IMG/VR virus record: IMGVR_UViG_3300035187_003154
Span: 1 to 26,503 of that record
Length of the DNA stretch: 26,503 nt
Direction: 5' to 3' (one strand)
Source of the DNA: a virus
How positions within the stretch are numbered: position 1 is the stretch's first letter; every line of letters begins with the position of its first letter. Below the pieces are notes generated by a model, which had not been told where the DNA came from, made no database searches, and worked only from the letters and a program-made list of their open reading frames with translations. A program made the position numbers and the translations under genes. Below are positions 21,083 through 26,079 of the stretch, one piece after another.

Positions 21083-21334
21083 GCCCTTCATCCGTTTCAC
21101 CCGCAAACCCTCGGACGGTGGCCCCCGTGCAGTGCCAAGCCACCGACCCTTTGCGCCAGGCTGGCCGGCCGCGATGCCGGCTGCTGGCCGTGCACGCCCT
21201 GCCGTTCCTCCTGCGGCAATCCGGGCGGCCGGCTGGCGGCGCGTTTTTTCTTCCCTGAGCTTCGTCACCGACCATGCCCGCCATGGTGCGGGCCGTGGCC
21301 GGGCCGATGCTGAGCATCCTCAAGGACTCAACTG
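21083..21334. other. Intergenic stretch before the replication genes
   Basis: No convincing gene is seen here. The rightward part has hairpins CCCGC-(6)-GCGGG (about 21278-21293) and GATGC-(3)-GCATC (about 21308-21320), then a ribosome site (AAGGA) for the 96-residue gene. A T run (GCGCGTTTTTTC, about 21239-21250) follows GC-rich sequence, but no clean terminator stem was found. It may hold the leftward promoter for gene B. Confidence 0.4.
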
Positions 21335-21625
21335 ATGGCAGGCCAACGTGTCAGCACCCAGGCCGCAGGCGGCCGCGCCGCGCCCACCGGGCGCAAGGTT
21401 GTGCAGTTCGAGGCGCGGATCGGCAACCTGTACCTCACCCGCATGGGCCGCGTGTGCAAGCTGCTGCGCATCGAGCCGCCCACGGCCGATCGGCCGGATT
21501 GCCTGCTGGGCTTCGGGTACGTCGACCAAGACAACCGCGTGCTGCGCATCGGGCCCAGCATCGACGGGTTCGACATGCACGAACGCATCGCCAGCCGGCT
21601 GCTGACGAGGATCGGCCAGCCGTGA
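21335..21625 (+). CDS. Unknown early protein upstream of the Toprim gene
   Basis: This 96-residue protein starts MAGQRVSTQAAGGRAAPTGR with a basic disordered tail. A compact domain follows with repeated strands (VVQFEARIGNLYLTRMGR; CLLGFGYVDQDNRVLRIGPS) and a helix at the end. It is linked to the Toprim gene by a GTGA overlap, so it is probably part of the replication module. No family recognised. Confidence 0.65.
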   Translation: MAGQRVSTQAAGGRAAPTGRKVVQFEARIGNLYLTRMGRVCKLLRIEPPTADRPDCLLGFGYVDQDNRVLRIGPSIDGFDMHERIASRLLTRIGQP

Positions 21626-22593
21626 ACGAACAGGACGTGGTTTCCCAGATGGTGCAGGCGGGCTTGGACATGCCCCCATCGCCGTTGAACCTGAATGGGA
21701 AGCGCGTCTACTTTGGCCCGAAGAAGAAGCAGTGGTACCGGCTGCACGAGATTCGCTCCAGGGTCAGCAACCGCGAAGTGGTGGTGGGTGACTTTGGCGA
21801 CTTCAAGCACGGCGTCTACTGCAAGGTGGACATCGACTGGAAGGGCATGGCCGCTGAGGAGCGCGAGCGCCTGAAGGAACAGCGTCTGCAGCAAGAGCAG
21901 CGGCAGAAGCAAGAGCGCGCCGCCGCCGCCGCCCAGGCCGCCATGACCGCCGCCGAGCTCTGGACCAGCGCCGCACGCGAGCCCCTGGGCCCCGTGCCCT
22001 ACCTGCAGCGCAAGGCGGTGCAGGCCGAGGGCTGCCGCTACCTGCGCGATGGCTCCATCGTCATCCCGCTGATCCGCTACGACCTGCCGCGTGACCAGGC
22101 GCTGAAGGCGCTGCAGGTCATCCGCCCGGATGGCACCAAGCGCTTCACCAAGGGCTTCGAGAAGCCGGGCTGCTGCCTGCGCCTGGGCCATGTGGTGGTG
22201 GGCGAGCCGCTGCTGATCTGCGAGGGCTGGGCCACGGGCCTGAGCCTGCGCATGGCCCTGGAGCGCAAGCTGCCCGTCTTCGTTGGTCTGGACGCCGGCA
22301 ACCTGCTGCCCGTGGCGCAGCTGCTGCGCGGCCTGTACCCGCAAAGCCCGCTGCTGATCTGCGCTGACGACGACTGGCGCACCGAGGGCAACCCGGGGCG
22401 CCTGAAAGCGCACCAGGCCGCCAAGGCGGTGTCTGAGTGCGCCTACACCTGGCCGGTGTTTCAGCGGCATCTGCGCGGGCCGAAGGACACCGATTTCAAC
22501 GACCTGGCGCTGCGCCAAGGCCTGAACGCCGTGCGACAGCAGATCCGCCAGGTGCTGCCGTTCATCGGTTCGGAAATTCTGAATGCTGCCTAA
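21622..22593 (+). CDS. Toprim-domain replication protein (primase-like)
   Basis: This 323-residue protein starts at a GTG that overlaps the previous stop. Residues 1-75 form an N-terminal beta domain (RVYFGPKKKQWYRLHEIRSR). A long charged helix follows (about 76-108), then a zinc-free primase-associated segment (GPVPYLQRKAVQAEGCRYL). The C-terminal Toprim core shows LLICEGWATGLSLRMAL (Glu201), VFVGLDAGNLLPVA and LLICADDDWR (Asp249-251). These acidic residues are the metal-binding set of Toprim enzymes. It should make primers with the helicase encoded next, which overlaps it by 11 bases. An upstream in-frame extension to 21274 was rejected because it overlaps the 96-residue gene. Confidence 0.85.
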   Translation: MNEQDVVSQMVQAGLDMPPSPLNLNGKRVYFGPKKKQWYRLHEIRSRVSNREVVVGDFGDFKHGVYCKVDIDWKGMAAEERERLKEQRLQQEQRQKQERAAAAAQAAMTAAELWTSAAREPLGPVPYLQRKAVQAEGCRYLRDGSIVIPLIRYDLPRDQALKALQVIRPDGTKRFTKGFEKPGCCLRLGHVVVGEPLLICEGWATGLSLRMALERKLPVFVGLDAGNLLPVAQLLRGLYPQSPLLICADDDWRTEGNPGRLKAHQAAKAVSECAYTWPVFQRHLRGPKDTDFNDLALRQGLNAVRQQIRQVLPFIGSEILNAA

Positions 22594-24040
22594 GCCTGAG
22601 AACGTCATCCGCATGAGCGAAGAACCGCCTACCCCGCCTGATGGTGGCGCCAAGCCGCCGCCCAAGGGGAAGGGGGGCACGCGGCGCAAGTCCACCATCA
22701 ACCTGGGCAACTACAGCACGCTGATGTCCGGCTTCGCGCTGATCTACGGCACGAAGACGGCATGGGACGACGAGAACCACCGCATCGTGCCCGTTGACGC
22801 GCTGCGCCTGGCGATGACCAGCGACAGCGTGAAGGCCTGGCTGAACTCGCCCAACAGGCGAATGGTCATGCCCGAGCAGTTGCTGTTCGAGCCGGGGCAG
22901 GAACTGCCCGAGGGCTGCGTGCAGCTTTTCGGCGGCATGGAGGTGGAGCCGCTGAAGTGCAAGCCGGAAGACGTCAAGCCCATGCTTGCCCTGCTGCGCC
23001 ACCTGTGCGGCGAGAGCGCAGACACGCCACAGGGCGTGGAGGATGTCATGCAATGGGTGCTGCGCTGGCAGGCCCTGCCGTTGCAGCAGCTGGGCACCAA
23101 GATGCAGACGGCCGTGGTGATGCACGGGCCGCAGGGCACGGGCAAGAACCTGTACTGGGACGTGTGGCGTGACCTCTTCGGGCGCTACGGCATCACGGTG
23201 GGCCAGACCGAGCTTGAAGACAAGTTCAACGGCTGGCTGAGCCAGAAGCTGGCCATCATCGGTGACGAGGTGGTGAGCCGCCAGGAGATGTACCACAACA
23301 AGAACCGGCTCAAGCTCATCGTCACGCAAGAGCAGAAGTTCCCCATCCGTGAGATTCAGCAGCCCACGCGCTGGGAGAGCAACCACGCCAATGTCGTCTT
23401 CCTGAGCAACGAGAGCCAGCCGCTGGCCCTGGAAGAGCGTGACCGAAGGTACATGGTGGTCTACACGCCGCTGGCGGCCGATGTGACGCTGTATGAGAGC
23501 GTCAAGACCTTCCTGGCCAACGATGGCGCCCGCAAGTGGCTGTGGTTCCTGCAGAACTACCCGCTGGGCGACTTCAACCGGCACACCAAGCCCATCCTGA
23601 CCAAGGCCAAGAACGACCTGATCCAAAGCGGGTGGCTGCCGGCGCAGCGTTTCGCGCATGAGTGGATGCAGGGTTATCTCCCGCTCCCTCTGCGTGTGTG
23701 CTCGGCCGAGCAGATTTACCGGGCCTTCAGCCGATGGTGCAGTGTGAACGGCGAAAGGTTCCCGCCTTCGCAGGGCAAGTTCACCAGCGAGGTGCAGCGC
23801 TGGCTGAAAGAGCACCAGGGCGCCGACGAGAAGGGCCCGCGCCTGGTCTACAAGGTGGTGGCCCTGGACAACCCTGGCGGCGTGCGCAAGGCCGTGCGCT
23901 GCTGGCTTCCCAAGGGCGCAGGGCCGAAGGACGGTGCCAGTGAGGGGGCCTGGGCCGGTGAAAGCGTGCGCAGTTTCGAGAACGATCTGCGCGGTTTCCT
24001 GCGCGACATCACCAGTGGAGAGGTGCCAGATGACGCCTGA
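22583..24040 (+). CDS. Replicative helicase, DUF5906 / SF3-like
   Basis: This 485-residue protein has a basic, Pro-rich N-terminus (to ~38). Its ATPase core shows Walker A GPQGTGKN at 182-189, Walker B LAIIGDEV at 223-230, a sensor-type strand VVFLSN at 271-276 and an arginine-finger region EERDRRYMVV at 284-293. This is the D5/DUF5906 group of phage and plasmid helicases, usually paired with a Toprim or primase protein as here. It would open the origin and drive fork movement. The C-terminal wing (SAEQIYRAFSRWCSVNGERF) resembles a winged-helix domain that could bind the origin. The GTTACGC array begins 21 bases after its stop. Confidence 0.87.
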   Translation: MLPKPENVIRMSEEPPTPPDGGAKPPPKGKGGTRRKSTINLGNYSTLMSGFALIYGTKTAWDDENHRIVPVDALRLAMTSDSVKAWLNSPNRRMVMPEQLLFEPGQELPEGCVQLFGGMEVEPLKCKPEDVKPMLALLRHLCGESADTPQGVEDVMQWVLRWQALPLQQLGTKMQTAVVMHGPQGTGKNLYWDVWRDLFGRYGITVGQTELEDKFNGWLSQKLAIIGDEVVSRQEMYHNKNRLKLIVTQEQKFPIREIQQPTRWESNHANVVFLSNESQPLALEERDRRYMVVYTPLAADVTLYESVKTFLANDGARKWLWFLQNYPLGDFNRHTKPILTKAKNDLIQSGWLPAQRFAHEWMQGYLPLPLRVCSAEQIYRAFSRWCSVNGERFPPSQGKFTSEVQRWLKEHQGADEKGPRLVYKVVALDNPGGVRKAVRCWLPKGAGPKDGASEGAWAGESVRSFENDLRGFLRDITSGEVPDDA

Positions 24041-24242
24041 GCACCGTTCGAGCCGCGTCTGTTACGCGGGCGTTACGCGGGCGTTACGCGCTAAGTCCTT
24101 GATGTTACGCATGTTACGCCGTTACGCGGCCCTCGCGTATGCGTGTGCACATGTGCGCGCACGCCCGCATGTGTTGACGGATCAAGGCGTAACAGGCGTA
24201 ACACGCGTAACAACGCGCCCTGTAGGCGTAATGCAGGCGTAA
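24030..24242 (+). CDS. Possible 70-residue protein encoded across the repeats
   Basis: The frame starts with ATG 11 bases before the helicase stop and runs through the repeat array as repeated V-T-R / G-V-T units (CYAGVTRALRA; GVTGVTRVTTRPVGVMQA). It is Cys/Arg/Val-rich and lacks a recognisable fold. The repeat DNA alone explains the peptide repeats, so coding function is doubtful. The overlap start is similar to real coupling elsewhere in this genome, which is the only positive point. Confidence 0.3.
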   Translation: MTPEHRSSRVCYAGVTRALRAKSLMLRMLRRYAALAYACAHVRARPHVLTDQGVTGVTRVTTRPVGVMQA

Positions 24243-24254
24243 CAGCCGCGTAAC
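24061..24254. repeat. Mirror-symmetric GTTACGC iteron array (putative origin)
   Basis: Six forward units GTTACGC start at 24061, 24072, 24083, 24104, 24113 and 24121. Six reverse units GCGTAAC start at 24187, 24196, 24205, 24226 (last base changed), 24237 and 24248. Start-to-start steps are 11, 11, 21, 9, 8 on the left and 9, 9, 21, 11, 11 on the right. Five of six pairs share the axis 24157.5, and the sixth differs by half a base. Spacers differ in sequence. Near the axis lies the imperfect hairpin GCGTGTGC (24141-24148) / GCGCACGC (24157-24164). Position behind the helicase and unit design fit an initiator-binding origin. Confidence 0.8.
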
Positions 24255-24298: not shown

Positions 24299-24622
24299 AT
24301 GAAAAACCAGGAAGCGATGAAAGAGGAAGAAGGGGTGAAGAAGGGCGGCCTGCGCCAGGCCATGCCTGGTGCTGCGGCTTTGGTGGACGAGCTGCGGCAG
24401 GTGTTCGGCCAGGCCTGGGTGGATGCCGCGCTGCGCGAAGGCCTGCGCCTGCAGCGTGAGCACGCCAGGCGGGCCGCAGAGCAGGGCCAGGCTGCCGCAG
24501 ACCAATGGCTGGACGCCCAGCCCCTCAAGGCCCCCGCCATTCGCGTGGCTGAGGCCGGCAAGGTCGTGGGCGCCCTGGTGGGCAACAGGCCGGCACGGCT
24601 GGCTGCAAGGGGAAGAGCATGA
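24299..24622 (+). CDS. Small unknown protein after the origin array
   Basis: This 107-residue protein starts MKNQEAMKEEEGVKKGGLRQ. A segment GAAALVDELRQVFGQAWVDA follows, then ALREGLRLQREHARRAAEQG. The 'P-x-x-A-x-x-V/I-D-x-L/M-R-x-x-F-G' section is familiar, from memory, from short proteins that precede terminase-side genes in Burkholderiales phages; function unknown. A second ATG at 24317 has AGGA close upstream and could be the real start. It is coupled to the next gene by ATGA. Confidence 0.65.
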   Translation: MKNQEAMKEEEGVKKGGLRQAMPGAAALVDELRQVFGQAWVDAALREGLRLQREHARRAAEQGQAAADQWLDAQPLKAPAIRVAEAGKVVGALVGNRPARLAARGRA

Positions 24623-25425
24623 GGATCACCCTCGAATCCAACATCGCCCAGGTGCGGGCCCAGGTGGCGCAGTTCTCCGATCGACGCTTCAAAGCGGCCA
24701 TGGCCACGGCCCTGACGCGCACGGCAGTGCAGGTGCGCGCAGGCGTGCAGGCCGAGCTGCCCCGCGTGCTGGACCGGCCCACGCCGTACACCATGCGGCA
24801 GTTGCGCTACGTGGGTGCATCGGCTGACCGCCTGGCTGCAGCCGTGGGCTTCAACGTGGTGAGCGTCACTGATGAGCGCGGCGCCCGCATCGGCTTCCGT
24901 GACCTGGGCGAGGGCGAGACGCCGGCCGGCAACTACCTGCAGCCCAACATCGACGGCGGCACGCGGCGCGTGAAGCGGCTGGAGGAAGCCCTGCGCGCCC
25001 AGGGTGCGCTGCCTGACGGCTGGCTGGTGGTGCCAGGGCAGGGCGCCACCATCGACGCCTACGGCAACGTGGCGCGCAGCCAGGTGGTGCAGGTGCTGGC
25101 ACAGCTTCGCATCCAGCTTCTGTCGGGCACCACGCGCAACATGAGCTTCGACGCCCGCAAGCAGATCACTGCGCAGCGCAAGGCCGGTGGCCGCTTCTTC
25201 GTGATCCCTCCCGGCAAAGGCAAGCAGCAGCCCGGCATCTACCAGCGCGAGTTCAACGGCCGCAACATCACGCCGGTCTTCATCTTCGTGCGCGGCGCCA
25301 CCTACCGCCGCCGCTTCGACTTCGACTCGTTGGCCAAGCGCCTGGCCGACCAGACGCTGCCGGGCGAAGTGCAGCGGGCCGTGAACGAAAGCCTGGCGCG
25401 TCTGTCGGCCAGGTCAGGCGCATGA
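24619..25425 (+). CDS. Tail protein Z-like / virion morphogenesis protein
   Basis: This 268-residue basic protein includes RRFKAAMATALTRTAVQVRA near 22-41, the GG-R-RVKRLEEALRAQG section near 114-130, and RFFVIPPGKG and PVFIFVRGATYRRRFDFD near 215-236. The early 'A..A.N/T.T...V' helix and late 'P.FIF..G..Y..RF.F' strand resemble minor tail protein Z-type proteins that complete tail tips or block immature tails. The site just before terminase, away from the other tail genes, is unusual for lambda but seen in related Burkholderiales prophages (from memory). Its last bases lead into the cos-like region. Role inferred, not proven. Confidence 0.55.
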   Translation: MRITLESNIAQVRAQVAQFSDRRFKAAMATALTRTAVQVRAGVQAELPRVLDRPTPYTMRQLRYVGASADRLAAAVGFNVVSVTDERGARIGFRDLGEGETPAGNYLQPNIDGGTRRVKRLEEALRAQGALPDGWLVVPGQGATIDAYGNVARSQVVQVLAQLRIQLLSGTTRNMSFDARKQITAQRKAGGRFFVIPPGKGKQQPGIYQREFNGRNITPVFIFVRGATYRRRFDFDSLAKRLADQTLPGEVQRAVNESLARLSARSGA

Positions 25426-25545
25426 CCAGCCACCGCCCACCCCCCCGGTTCGGGTCCTCCCTGGCACCTGCCAGCGCGGGTAATTCGGACCCCGCGTTTT
25501 CGCTAGTTGGTCCCGTGCGGACTTTGTACGCCTAGGGGTTCGCTG
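25426..25545 (+). other. Putative cos region and terminase leader
   Basis: This 120-base gap precedes the small terminase gene. It contains inverted repeats GGGTCC (25452-25457) / GGACCC (25487-25492), CTGGC (25461-25465) / GCCAG (25470-25474) and GCGGG (25476-25480) / CCCGC (25491-25495). An A/T-richer stretch (GTTTTCGCTAGTTGG) follows, then AGGGG before the ATG. Dense dyads directly upstream of a lambda-type small terminase are where cohesive-end sites lie. The exact nick positions cannot be read from sequence. Confidence 0.5.
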
Positions 25546-26079
25546 ATGCCTGTCGGTACGGTCCAGCTCATCACCCAGGCCGAATACGCCCGGCGGCGCG
25601 GGTGCACCGAGGGCGCCGTGCGGCGCGCGGTGCGCGATGGGCGCATCAGCCTCATCAACGGCAAGATCGACCCCGTGGCCGCGGACGCGCAGTGGGCGCG
25701 CAATACGCGCGTGCGGGCGGGCAGCCGGGCCACCGACGACGTCAACCTCAGCGGCAGCGGCAGCACGGGCGGCACCGCTGGCGGTGACGATGACGACGAA
25801 GACAGCGCCACCGGCTACTGGAAGAGCCGCGCCAGGCGCGAGCGCGCCGAGGCCGAGCTGGCCGAGCTCAAGCTGGCCGAGATGCAGGGCCAGCTCGTGC
25901 GCGCCGATGACTGGGCTGCCGCCCTGGCCAAGCGCGCCGCCGCCTTCCGCGAAGGCCTGCTGCAGATCCCCGCCCGCCTGTCGGCCCAGCTTGCTGCGGA
26001 ATCTGACCAGGCGCGCATCCATGCCCTGCTCGAAGACGAACTGCGCCAGGTGATGTCGCAGCTCACCGCGGCCACCTGA
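25546..26079 (+). CDS. Terminase small subunit (Nu1-like)
   Basis: This 177-residue protein has an N-terminal winged-helix/HTH (LITQAEYARRRGCTEGAVRR, then AVRDGRISLINGKIDP). An acidic Gly/Ser/Asp linker follows (about 63-86), then a long helical part (ARRERAEAELAELKLAEMQG; LVRADDWAAALAKRAAAFRE) ending in LRQVMSQL. This is the DNA-packaging Nu1-type layout, in which the HTH binds cos and the helix pairs with the large subunit. AGGGG lies seven to eight bases before the ATG. The large subunit starts nine bases after the stop. Confidence 0.85.
   Translation: MPVGTVQLITQAEYARRRGCTEGAVRRAVRDGRISLINGKIDPVAADAQWARNTRVRAGSRATDDVNLSGSGSTGGTAGGDDDDEDSATGYWKSRARRERAEAELAELKLAEMQGQLVRADDWAAALAKRAAAFREGLLQIPARLSAQLAAESDQARIHALLEDELRQVMSQLTAAT

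What the first reader, a model, noticed from the sequence alone, without database searches (positions are those of the whole stretch)
24061..24254. Twelve-unit mirror-symmetric iteron array behind the helicase gene
Six GTTACGC units face six GCGTAAC units with matching spacing on both sides (11-11-21-9-8 and 9-9-21-11-11). Pairs 1/12, 2/11, 3/10, 4/9 and 5/8 all centre on 24157.5. Only the 7-bp units are kept; spacers keep length but not sequence, which argues for bound protein rather than a recent duplication. The 11-base steps place sites on one DNA face. A hairpin and alternating purine/pyrimidine DNA lie near the axis. Ordinary iteron origins have same-direction repeats; this one is built for two facing initiator assemblies, perhaps two opposed helicases. 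The most likely initiator is the helicase's C-terminal winged domain or one of the adjacent small proteins.
Basis: partly seen in the sequence, partly recalled or inferred. Interest (0 to 1): 0.87.

Follow-up and report, generated by a model that had tools for sequence, protein, structure and literature searches.

The report
Mirror-image phage replication start site
Directly behind a phage's DNA-unwinding (helicase) gene sit two facing sets of six short DNA tags, and relatives with quite different tag sequences keep the same layout, so this is very probably the landing pad where two copies of the helicase ring assemble face to face to start copying the phage genome.

Summary
The array is real. 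Eleven exact GTTACGC units and one ATTACGC form two facing sets of six at 24061-24254, starting 20 bp after a DUF5906 helicase gene. Five of six mirror pairs share one axis. All ten close IMG/VR hits (73-97% identical helicase) keep it, with an invariant 21-9-(8/9) | (8/9)-9-21 core. In 81 of 96 helicase lineages a repeat array follows the gene. Its unit has turned over into roughly 10-20 classes (GTGCGG, CAGACA, TGTTGGGT, GTGACG and others), while position, facing inner arms and a 9-bp pitch persist. Unit sequence tracks the helicase's C-terminal winged helix rather than its motor core, which points to the helicase as the binder. The fold is an SF3/D5-type hexameric helicase, nearest NrS-1 and SaPI5 Rep. 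Best reading: a replication origin on which two hexamers self-load head to head, as proposed for SaPI origins and resembling phage P4 crr. New are the scale, the unit/winged-helix co-evolution, and a centre of alternating pyrimidine-purine DNA (58 of 73 lineages), in the window without any AT-rich element. Replication itself was not tested. Verdict: a new variant of a known kind, a GC-rich mirror-symmetric rep-ori in ordinary temperate phages.

The parts
22583..24040 (+). DUF5906 (SF3/D5-type) replicative helicase, 485 aa; proposed origin binder and self-loading helicase
   Evidence: Pfam PF19263 E 5e-17; AlphaFold model pLDDT 90, closest to NrS-1 primase C-terminal region Z 27.8 and SaPI5 PriRep Z 18
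23696..23917 (+). C-terminal winged-helix domain of the helicase (residues 372-445); recognition helix about residues 397-411 (23771-23815)
   Evidence: Secondary structure of models; unit sequence tracks this region
21274..22593 (+). Toprim primase partner gene (longest ORF; true start uncertain and probably further downstream)
   Evidence: Pfam Toprim_3, PHROG DNA primase
24061..24067 (+). unit 1, GTTACGC
24072..24078 (+). unit 2, GTTACGC
24083..24089 (+). unit 3, GTTACGC
24090..24103 (.). left 21-step gap; in relatives it carries CTAAGT..TTG or AAACCCGCG, mirrored in the right arm
24104..24110 (+). unit 4, GTTACGC
24113..24119 (+). unit 5, GTTACGC
24121..24127 (+). unit 6, GTTACGC
24134..24164 (.). 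31-bp strictly alternating pyrimidine-purine (Z-DNA-prone) tract between the two arms
   Evidence: Longer than any same-length window sampled in the rest of the window, p<0.004
24187..24193 (-). unit 7, GTTACGC
24196..24202 (-). unit 8, GTTACGC
24205..24211 (-). unit 9, GTTACGC
24226..24232 (-). unit 10, ATTACGC (one mismatch)
24237..24243 (-). unit 11, GTTACGC
24248..24254 (-). unit 12, GTTACGC

Best explanation
The array is the replication origin of this temperate phage, lying directly behind the gene for its own initiator. SHOWN by computation: a conserved, position-fixed array of short units with facing inner arms follows the DUF5906 helicase gene, and the unit co-evolves with the helicase's C-terminal winged helix. 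INFERRED: each unit binds one winged-helix domain. Six units per arm recruit six subunits, so one SF3/D5-type hexamer self-assembles on each arm. The two arms face, so two hexamers load head to head around the roughly 60-bp centre. INFERRED, weaker: the centre is the site of initial melting, its alternating pyrimidine-purine DNA being easy to twist, flip to Z-form or unpair under negative supercoiling. The two hexamers then unwind in opposite directions, and the Toprim primase made by the upstream gene primes both forks.
For: Conservation: all 10 IMG/VR hits (73-97% identical helicase; L016 and L017 carry identical arrays) keep 6+6 facing units with core 21-9-(8/9) | (8/9)-9-21. Generality: 81 of 96 lineages exceed every shuffle for a 6-mer array in the 500 bp around the helicase stop; mean 9.3 copies against 4.0 in a control stretch of the gene. 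First unit is at a median of 14 bp after the stop. Five complete relatives have one cluster each. Reverse test: of 14 dense GTTACG arrays examined from a protein-blind search, 8 abut an ORF matching the helicase profile (E<1e-70). Binder: partial correlation of unit with winged helix given core 0.41 (0 of 500 permutations), with core given winged helix 0.16. In 42 non-overlapping sister pairs, C-terminal/core identity is 0.82 when the unit is kept (32) and 0.57 when it changed (10), p=2e-4. Two independent gains of Glu in the recognition helix accompany TTGGG to TAAGG. Fold: hexameric helicases NrS-1 and SaPI5 Rep. Precedent: SaPI Rep C-terminal domain binds iterons directly downstream of its gene, apparently as two hexamers (PMC7581432); SaPI repeats are opposed (PMC9894130).
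Against: No replication or binding experiment exists. The window has no AT-rich melting element (central GC 0.64, lowest 20-bp GC 0.50, p 0.41), unlike PICI origins. In two clades (GTGTTGGGT and TCAGACA types) the outer right sites point the same way as the left ones, so 6+6 is not universal. The correlation tests use related sequences, and the Glu test has only two independent events. GC skew in the 26.5-kb fragment shows no clear turn at the array. Some arrays of the same unit lie near other proteins.
Confidence: 0.82

Rival explanations
1. The array is a packaging (cos/pac) site read by the small terminase, whose gene lies 1.25 kb downstream.
For: Small terminase (phrog_57) at 25507-26079 and the start of large terminase follow; in phage S1 the small terminase gene starts about 70 bp after the array.
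Against: In H4907, PG1 and Mcat4 antitermination, lysis or other genes separate array and terminase by about 1.5-3 kb, while the helicase stays adjacent. The unit follows the helicase winged helix.
Confidence: 0.04
2. The array is an operator, enhancer or partition centromere bound by another phage protein that controls the late genes or segregation.
For: It lies at the early/late boundary in a non-coding gap; multi-site operators and centromeres also use iterons.
Against: No sigma-70-like promoter or terminator was found around it (weak test). The downstream gene differs between phages, so no other neighbour is shared as consistently as the helicase and its primase. Unit identity tracks the helicase C-terminus beyond its core.
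Confidence: 0.08
3. The array is a single-strand or hairpin element (cruciform, primosome or rolling-circle type origin), or a recent inverted duplication with no function.
For: The strand folds well as a whole (z -4.2), as any inverted array would.
Against: The centre folds no better than shuffles (window z -0.21; mean -0.45 over 73 lineages). Units but not most spacers are kept, and the geometry persists while units turn over. The helicase family is SF3/D5, not HUH Rep.
Confidence: 0.03
4. It is an origin, but only one hexamer is productively loaded (unidirectional or asymmetric firing), the second arm being accessory.
For: Outer arms are not mirrored in two clades; the alternating tract lies nearer the helicase-side arm in 52 of 73 lineages.
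Against: Inner arms face each other in nearly all lineages, and the window has an exact six-by-six mirror.
Confidence: 0.2

Closest known systems
SaPI / PICI rep-ori (staphylococcal SaPIs; Gram-negative PICIs)
   Same: Self-loading hexameric helicase initiator; origin directly behind its gene; two sets of short iterons about a centre; C-terminal DNA-binding domain; opposed repeats proposed to seat two head-to-head hexamers (PMC6092414, PMC7581432, PMC9894130). SaPI5 PriRep is among the nearest solved folds.
   Different: Here ordinary temperate phages rather than satellites; DUF5906 helicase with a separate or fused primase; no AT-rich centre in the window but an alternating pyrimidine-purine one; exact 6+6 mirror.
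Phage P4 alpha protein with crr and ori1
   Same: crr begins about 45 bp behind the alpha gene; short type I repeats in both orientations with 9- and 43-bp steps, steps also common here.
   Different: P4 has two clusters (crr and ori1) and crr is a 120-bp direct repeat with AT-rich stretches; the complete relatives here have one cluster. P4 lacks the alternating tract (longest run 7).
SV40 large T antigen / papillomavirus E1 origins
   Same: Opposed sites recruiting two SF3 hexamers head to head; E1 and the related parvovirus Rep40/Rep68 helicases appear among the fold matches.
   Different: Their origin-binding domain is N-terminal (PMC7581432); here the candidate is C-terminal. Eukaryotic viruses.
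NrS-1 phage primase C-terminal region and vaccinia D5
   Same: Closest fold: D5_N-DUF5906-Pox_D5 domain order (PMC9611036).
   Different: No origin array is described for them in the text read here.

Membership tests
SF3/D5-type (DUF5906) hexameric helicase | DUF5906 AAA+ domain and D5-like fold | tested here: met
   Pfam PF19263 E 5e-17 in the window and in 61 of 61 relatives; NrS-1 Z 27.8 over 362 residues
SF3/D5-type (DUF5906) hexameric helicase | C-terminal winged-helix (Pox_D5-like) domain | tested here: met
   Helix-helix-strand-strand winged-helix layout in the models; Pox_D5 matches in 23 of 61 members, best E 5e-4; the domain alone gives only weak winged-helix matches, Z 5-6
SaPI/PICI-type rep-ori | Iteron array directly downstream of the initiator helicase gene | tested here: met
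   Median 14 bp after the stop in 85 lineages; 20 bp in the window
SaPI/PICI-type rep-ori | Two iteron sets in opposed orientation about a centre | tested here: met
   6+6 facing in the window and its clade
SaPI/PICI-type rep-ori | AT-rich centre | tested here: not met
   Window centre GC 0.64, lowest 20-bp GC 0.50, p 0.41; met in 25 of 73 lineages of the family
SaPI/PICI-type rep-ori | Initiator C-terminal domain binds the iterons and the unit drives autonomous replication | not testable with these tools
   Indirect support from co-variation only
SaPI/PICI (element type) | Satellite lacking most structural genes of its own | tested here: not met
   Window holds its own tail, terminase and lysis genes
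P4 alpha/crr-ori1 | Type I repeats in crr behind alpha and again in a second, distant ori1 | tested here: not met
   Single cluster in five complete relatives; the window, a fragment, also shows only one

The most novel reading that the evidence does not exclude
These phages use a class of origin whose melting element is defined not by AT content but by strict pyrimidine-purine alternation. A GC-rich, Z-DNA-prone or torsionally soft tract is held between two head-to-head helicase hexamers and acts as the supercoiling-sensed initiation site, while the protein-read units turn over freely with the winged helix.
Probability: 0.35. Interest if true: 0.78.

Novelty: new variant of a known kind. Interest (0 to 1): 0.64.

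Why it matters
Double-hexamer self-loading has been studied mainly in SV40, papillomavirus, eukaryotes and staphylococcal satellites. Here is a large natural series of tailed-phage origins in which one geometry is kept while the recognition unit changes many times together with one small winged-helix domain. That allows the helicase-DNA recognition code to be read from sequence, origin specificity to be swapped between phages in the laboratory, and tests of how two opposed hexamers open GC-rich DNA without an AT-rich element. It also gives a simple rule for annotating replication origins in phages whose origins are unannotated; in records examined here the array is overlaid by hypothetical genes.

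Tried and rejected
Hairpin at the axis: rejected as the selected feature, since folding energy is not beyond shuffles. Packaging site and regulatory operator: considered, disfavoured (see rivals). Small downstream ORF as binder: rejected because different genes follow the array in S1, H4907, LPPA56 and the window clade. GC-skew turn at the array: none clear in this fragment. Exact mirror as a family law: rejected; gap-permutation p<0.05 in 33 of 85 lineages, and two clades have non-mirrored outer arms. AT-rich unwinding element in the window: not found. The genome scan found only three prophage relatives, so hosts are poorly sampled. Plasmid search gave four weak hits with no close relative. 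Foldseek search of the C-terminal domain alone gave no match below E 0.27, and the second-look alignment only Z 5-6 winged helices; the P4 alpha C-terminal domain was not among the rows shown, which shows nothing. Three core SaPI papers (Ubeda 2007, Ubeda 2012, Qiao 2022) were not held in the library, so SaPI details rest on PMC6092414, PMC7581432 and PMC9894130. The searches found no paper on origins of DUF5906 tailed phages, but the library is incomplete.

Full report
OBSERVATION. Chance would give about 1.2 GTTACGC in the whole window, and outside the array it holds one. Five of six mirror pairs share the axis 24157.5; permuting the observed gaps does so in 0.4% of trials.

SETTING. The window is a 26.5-kb IMG/VR virus record classed as linear, probably a fragment. 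The array fills the gap between a 485-aa helicase (22583-24040, Pfam DUF5906) and a small unassigned ORF, followed by a minor tail protein and the small terminase. A Toprim primase gene lies directly upstream. An integrase, a YdaS/Cro-like regulator and lysis genes mark a temperate phage.

CLOSE RELATIVES. Ten IMG/VR loci with 73-97% identical helicases all keep the array directly after the stop codon; two of them, L016 and L017, carry the same array. The inner steps 21-9-(8/9) | (8/9)-9-21 are invariant; the outer steps vary (19-20 and 12, or 11 and 11, on the left; 11-12 then 9, 11 or 20 on the right). Units drift within GTTWCG. In most of them the 21-step gap also carries an inverted AAACCCGCG/CGCGGGTTT; another subgroup carries CTAAGT..TTG. 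This refines the claim that spacers keep length only.

THE FAMILY. Annotated phages with 29-38% identical helicases have facing arrays of entirely different units in the same place: Stenotrophomonas phage S1 GTGCGG (six facing six), Halomonas phage H4907 CAGACA, Pseudomonas LPPA56, PG1 and pAN GTGTTGGGT, KT1 TGGTTA, Moraxella Mcat4 CAGGGT. A survey of 275 loci, 96 lineages at 90% identity, gives an array above every shuffle in 81. Unit motifs fall into about 10-20 classes depending on the cut. The first unit lies a median of 14 bp after the stop, and the commonest same-strand step is 9 bp. Mirrored units make up 59% against 40% for permuted gaps; 33 of 85 lineages are individually significant. 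The GTGTTGGGT and TCAGACA clades keep facing inner arms but direct outer ones. In five complete genomes the unit forms a single cluster.

REVERSE TEST. Of the 14 dense arrays examined, 8 abut an ORF matching the helicase profile at E<1e-70. Two (L357, L372) abut a Zn-ribbon/Toprim protein of P4-alpha type without a DUF5906 match, and the other four lie near other or cut-off genes.

WHO BINDS. The model of the window helicase (pLDDT 90) matches the NrS-1 helicase (Z 27.8), SaPI5 PriRep (Z 18) and poxvirus D5/E5 and ends in a winged-helix layout; the isolated domain gives only weak winged-helix matches. Unit similarity follows this domain: partial rank correlation 0.41 given the core (0 of 500 permutations), 0.16 for the core given the domain. 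In 42 non-overlapping sister pairs the C-terminal/core identity ratio is 0.82 when the unit is kept and 0.57 when it changed, p=2e-4; for example L055/L056 share 82% of core but 33% of C-terminus and use TGTGCGC and GTGCAGG. In the LPPA56 clade Glu replaces Ser/Thr in the recognition helix twice independently, with TTGGG units becoming TAAGG. In the window clade, YKV(V/I) helicases read GTTACG while YKQ/YRQ ones read GTCCCG/GTTCCG. These are correlations among related sequences; they make the helicase the best candidate but do not show binding.

THE CENTRE. Between the arms the window has 31 bp of strict pyrimidine-purine alternation (24134-24164). In 58 of 73 lineages the longest such run exceeds that of random same-length windows of the same locus (p<0.05 each); 37 of 73 also exceed dinucleotide shuffles, the stricter control. 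The letters differ; the alternation stays. AT-rich centres occur in 25, not in the window. Hairpin strength is unremarkable. The random windows are mostly coding DNA, so the shuffle figure should be preferred.

MECHANISM. Best reading: a self-loading helicase origin, with two SF3/D5 hexamers seated head to head, one on each six-unit arm, opening the central tract and leaving in opposite directions. Adjacency, conservation, geometry and co-variation are shown; binding, hexamer number, melting site and replication are inferred.

KNOWN KIND. This design is described for SaPI/PICI origins (iterons on both sides of an AT-rich region, PMC6092414; C-terminal domain binding, apparently two hexamers, PMC7581432; opposed repeats and head-to-head hexamers, PMC9894130). 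P4 crr, annotated about 45 bp behind alpha with 9- and 43-bp steps, is a second precedent. The window's element is not a satellite, has no AT-rich centre and no second cluster, so it is filed as a new variant, not as a SaPI or P4 member. Interest lies in the size of the series, the readable unit/winged-helix code and the alternating GC-rich centre.

Noticed in passing
L290 2454-2804 (phage S1 gp2); L291 27709-27825; L294 33388-33507: Annotated 'hypothetical proteins' in published phage records lie over or within the origin array and are probably not genes.
   Followed up: partly
window 24090-24103; L014, L018, L038, L041 in the same place: The 21-step gap holds a second inverted motif (AAACCCGCG or CTAAGT..TTG) conserved within subgroups; its reader is unknown.
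   Followed up: partly
L357 7769-8034; L372 5884-6149: A GTTACG array of the same architecture sits directly behind a Zn-ribbon/Toprim (P4-alpha type) protein with no DUF5906 match, so the layout extends beyond this helicase family.
   Followed up: partly
L332 651-940; L307 9573-9870; L362 4481-4778: Other dense GTTACG arrays near genes not matching the helicase profile; identity of their binder unknown.
   Followed up: no
window 24301-24622: Small ORF after the array with no Pfam or PHROG match, and a similar small ORF in the same place in several close relatives; function unknown.
   Followed up: no
L055 and L056; L065 and L078: Helicase pairs with about 80% identical core but 26-33% identical C-terminus and different units, suggesting replacement or fast evolution of the DNA-binding domain together with the origin.
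   Followed up: partly
window 24619-25425: A minor tail protein gene (phrog_1924) lies between the origin and the small terminase, ahead of the packaging genes.
   Followed up: no
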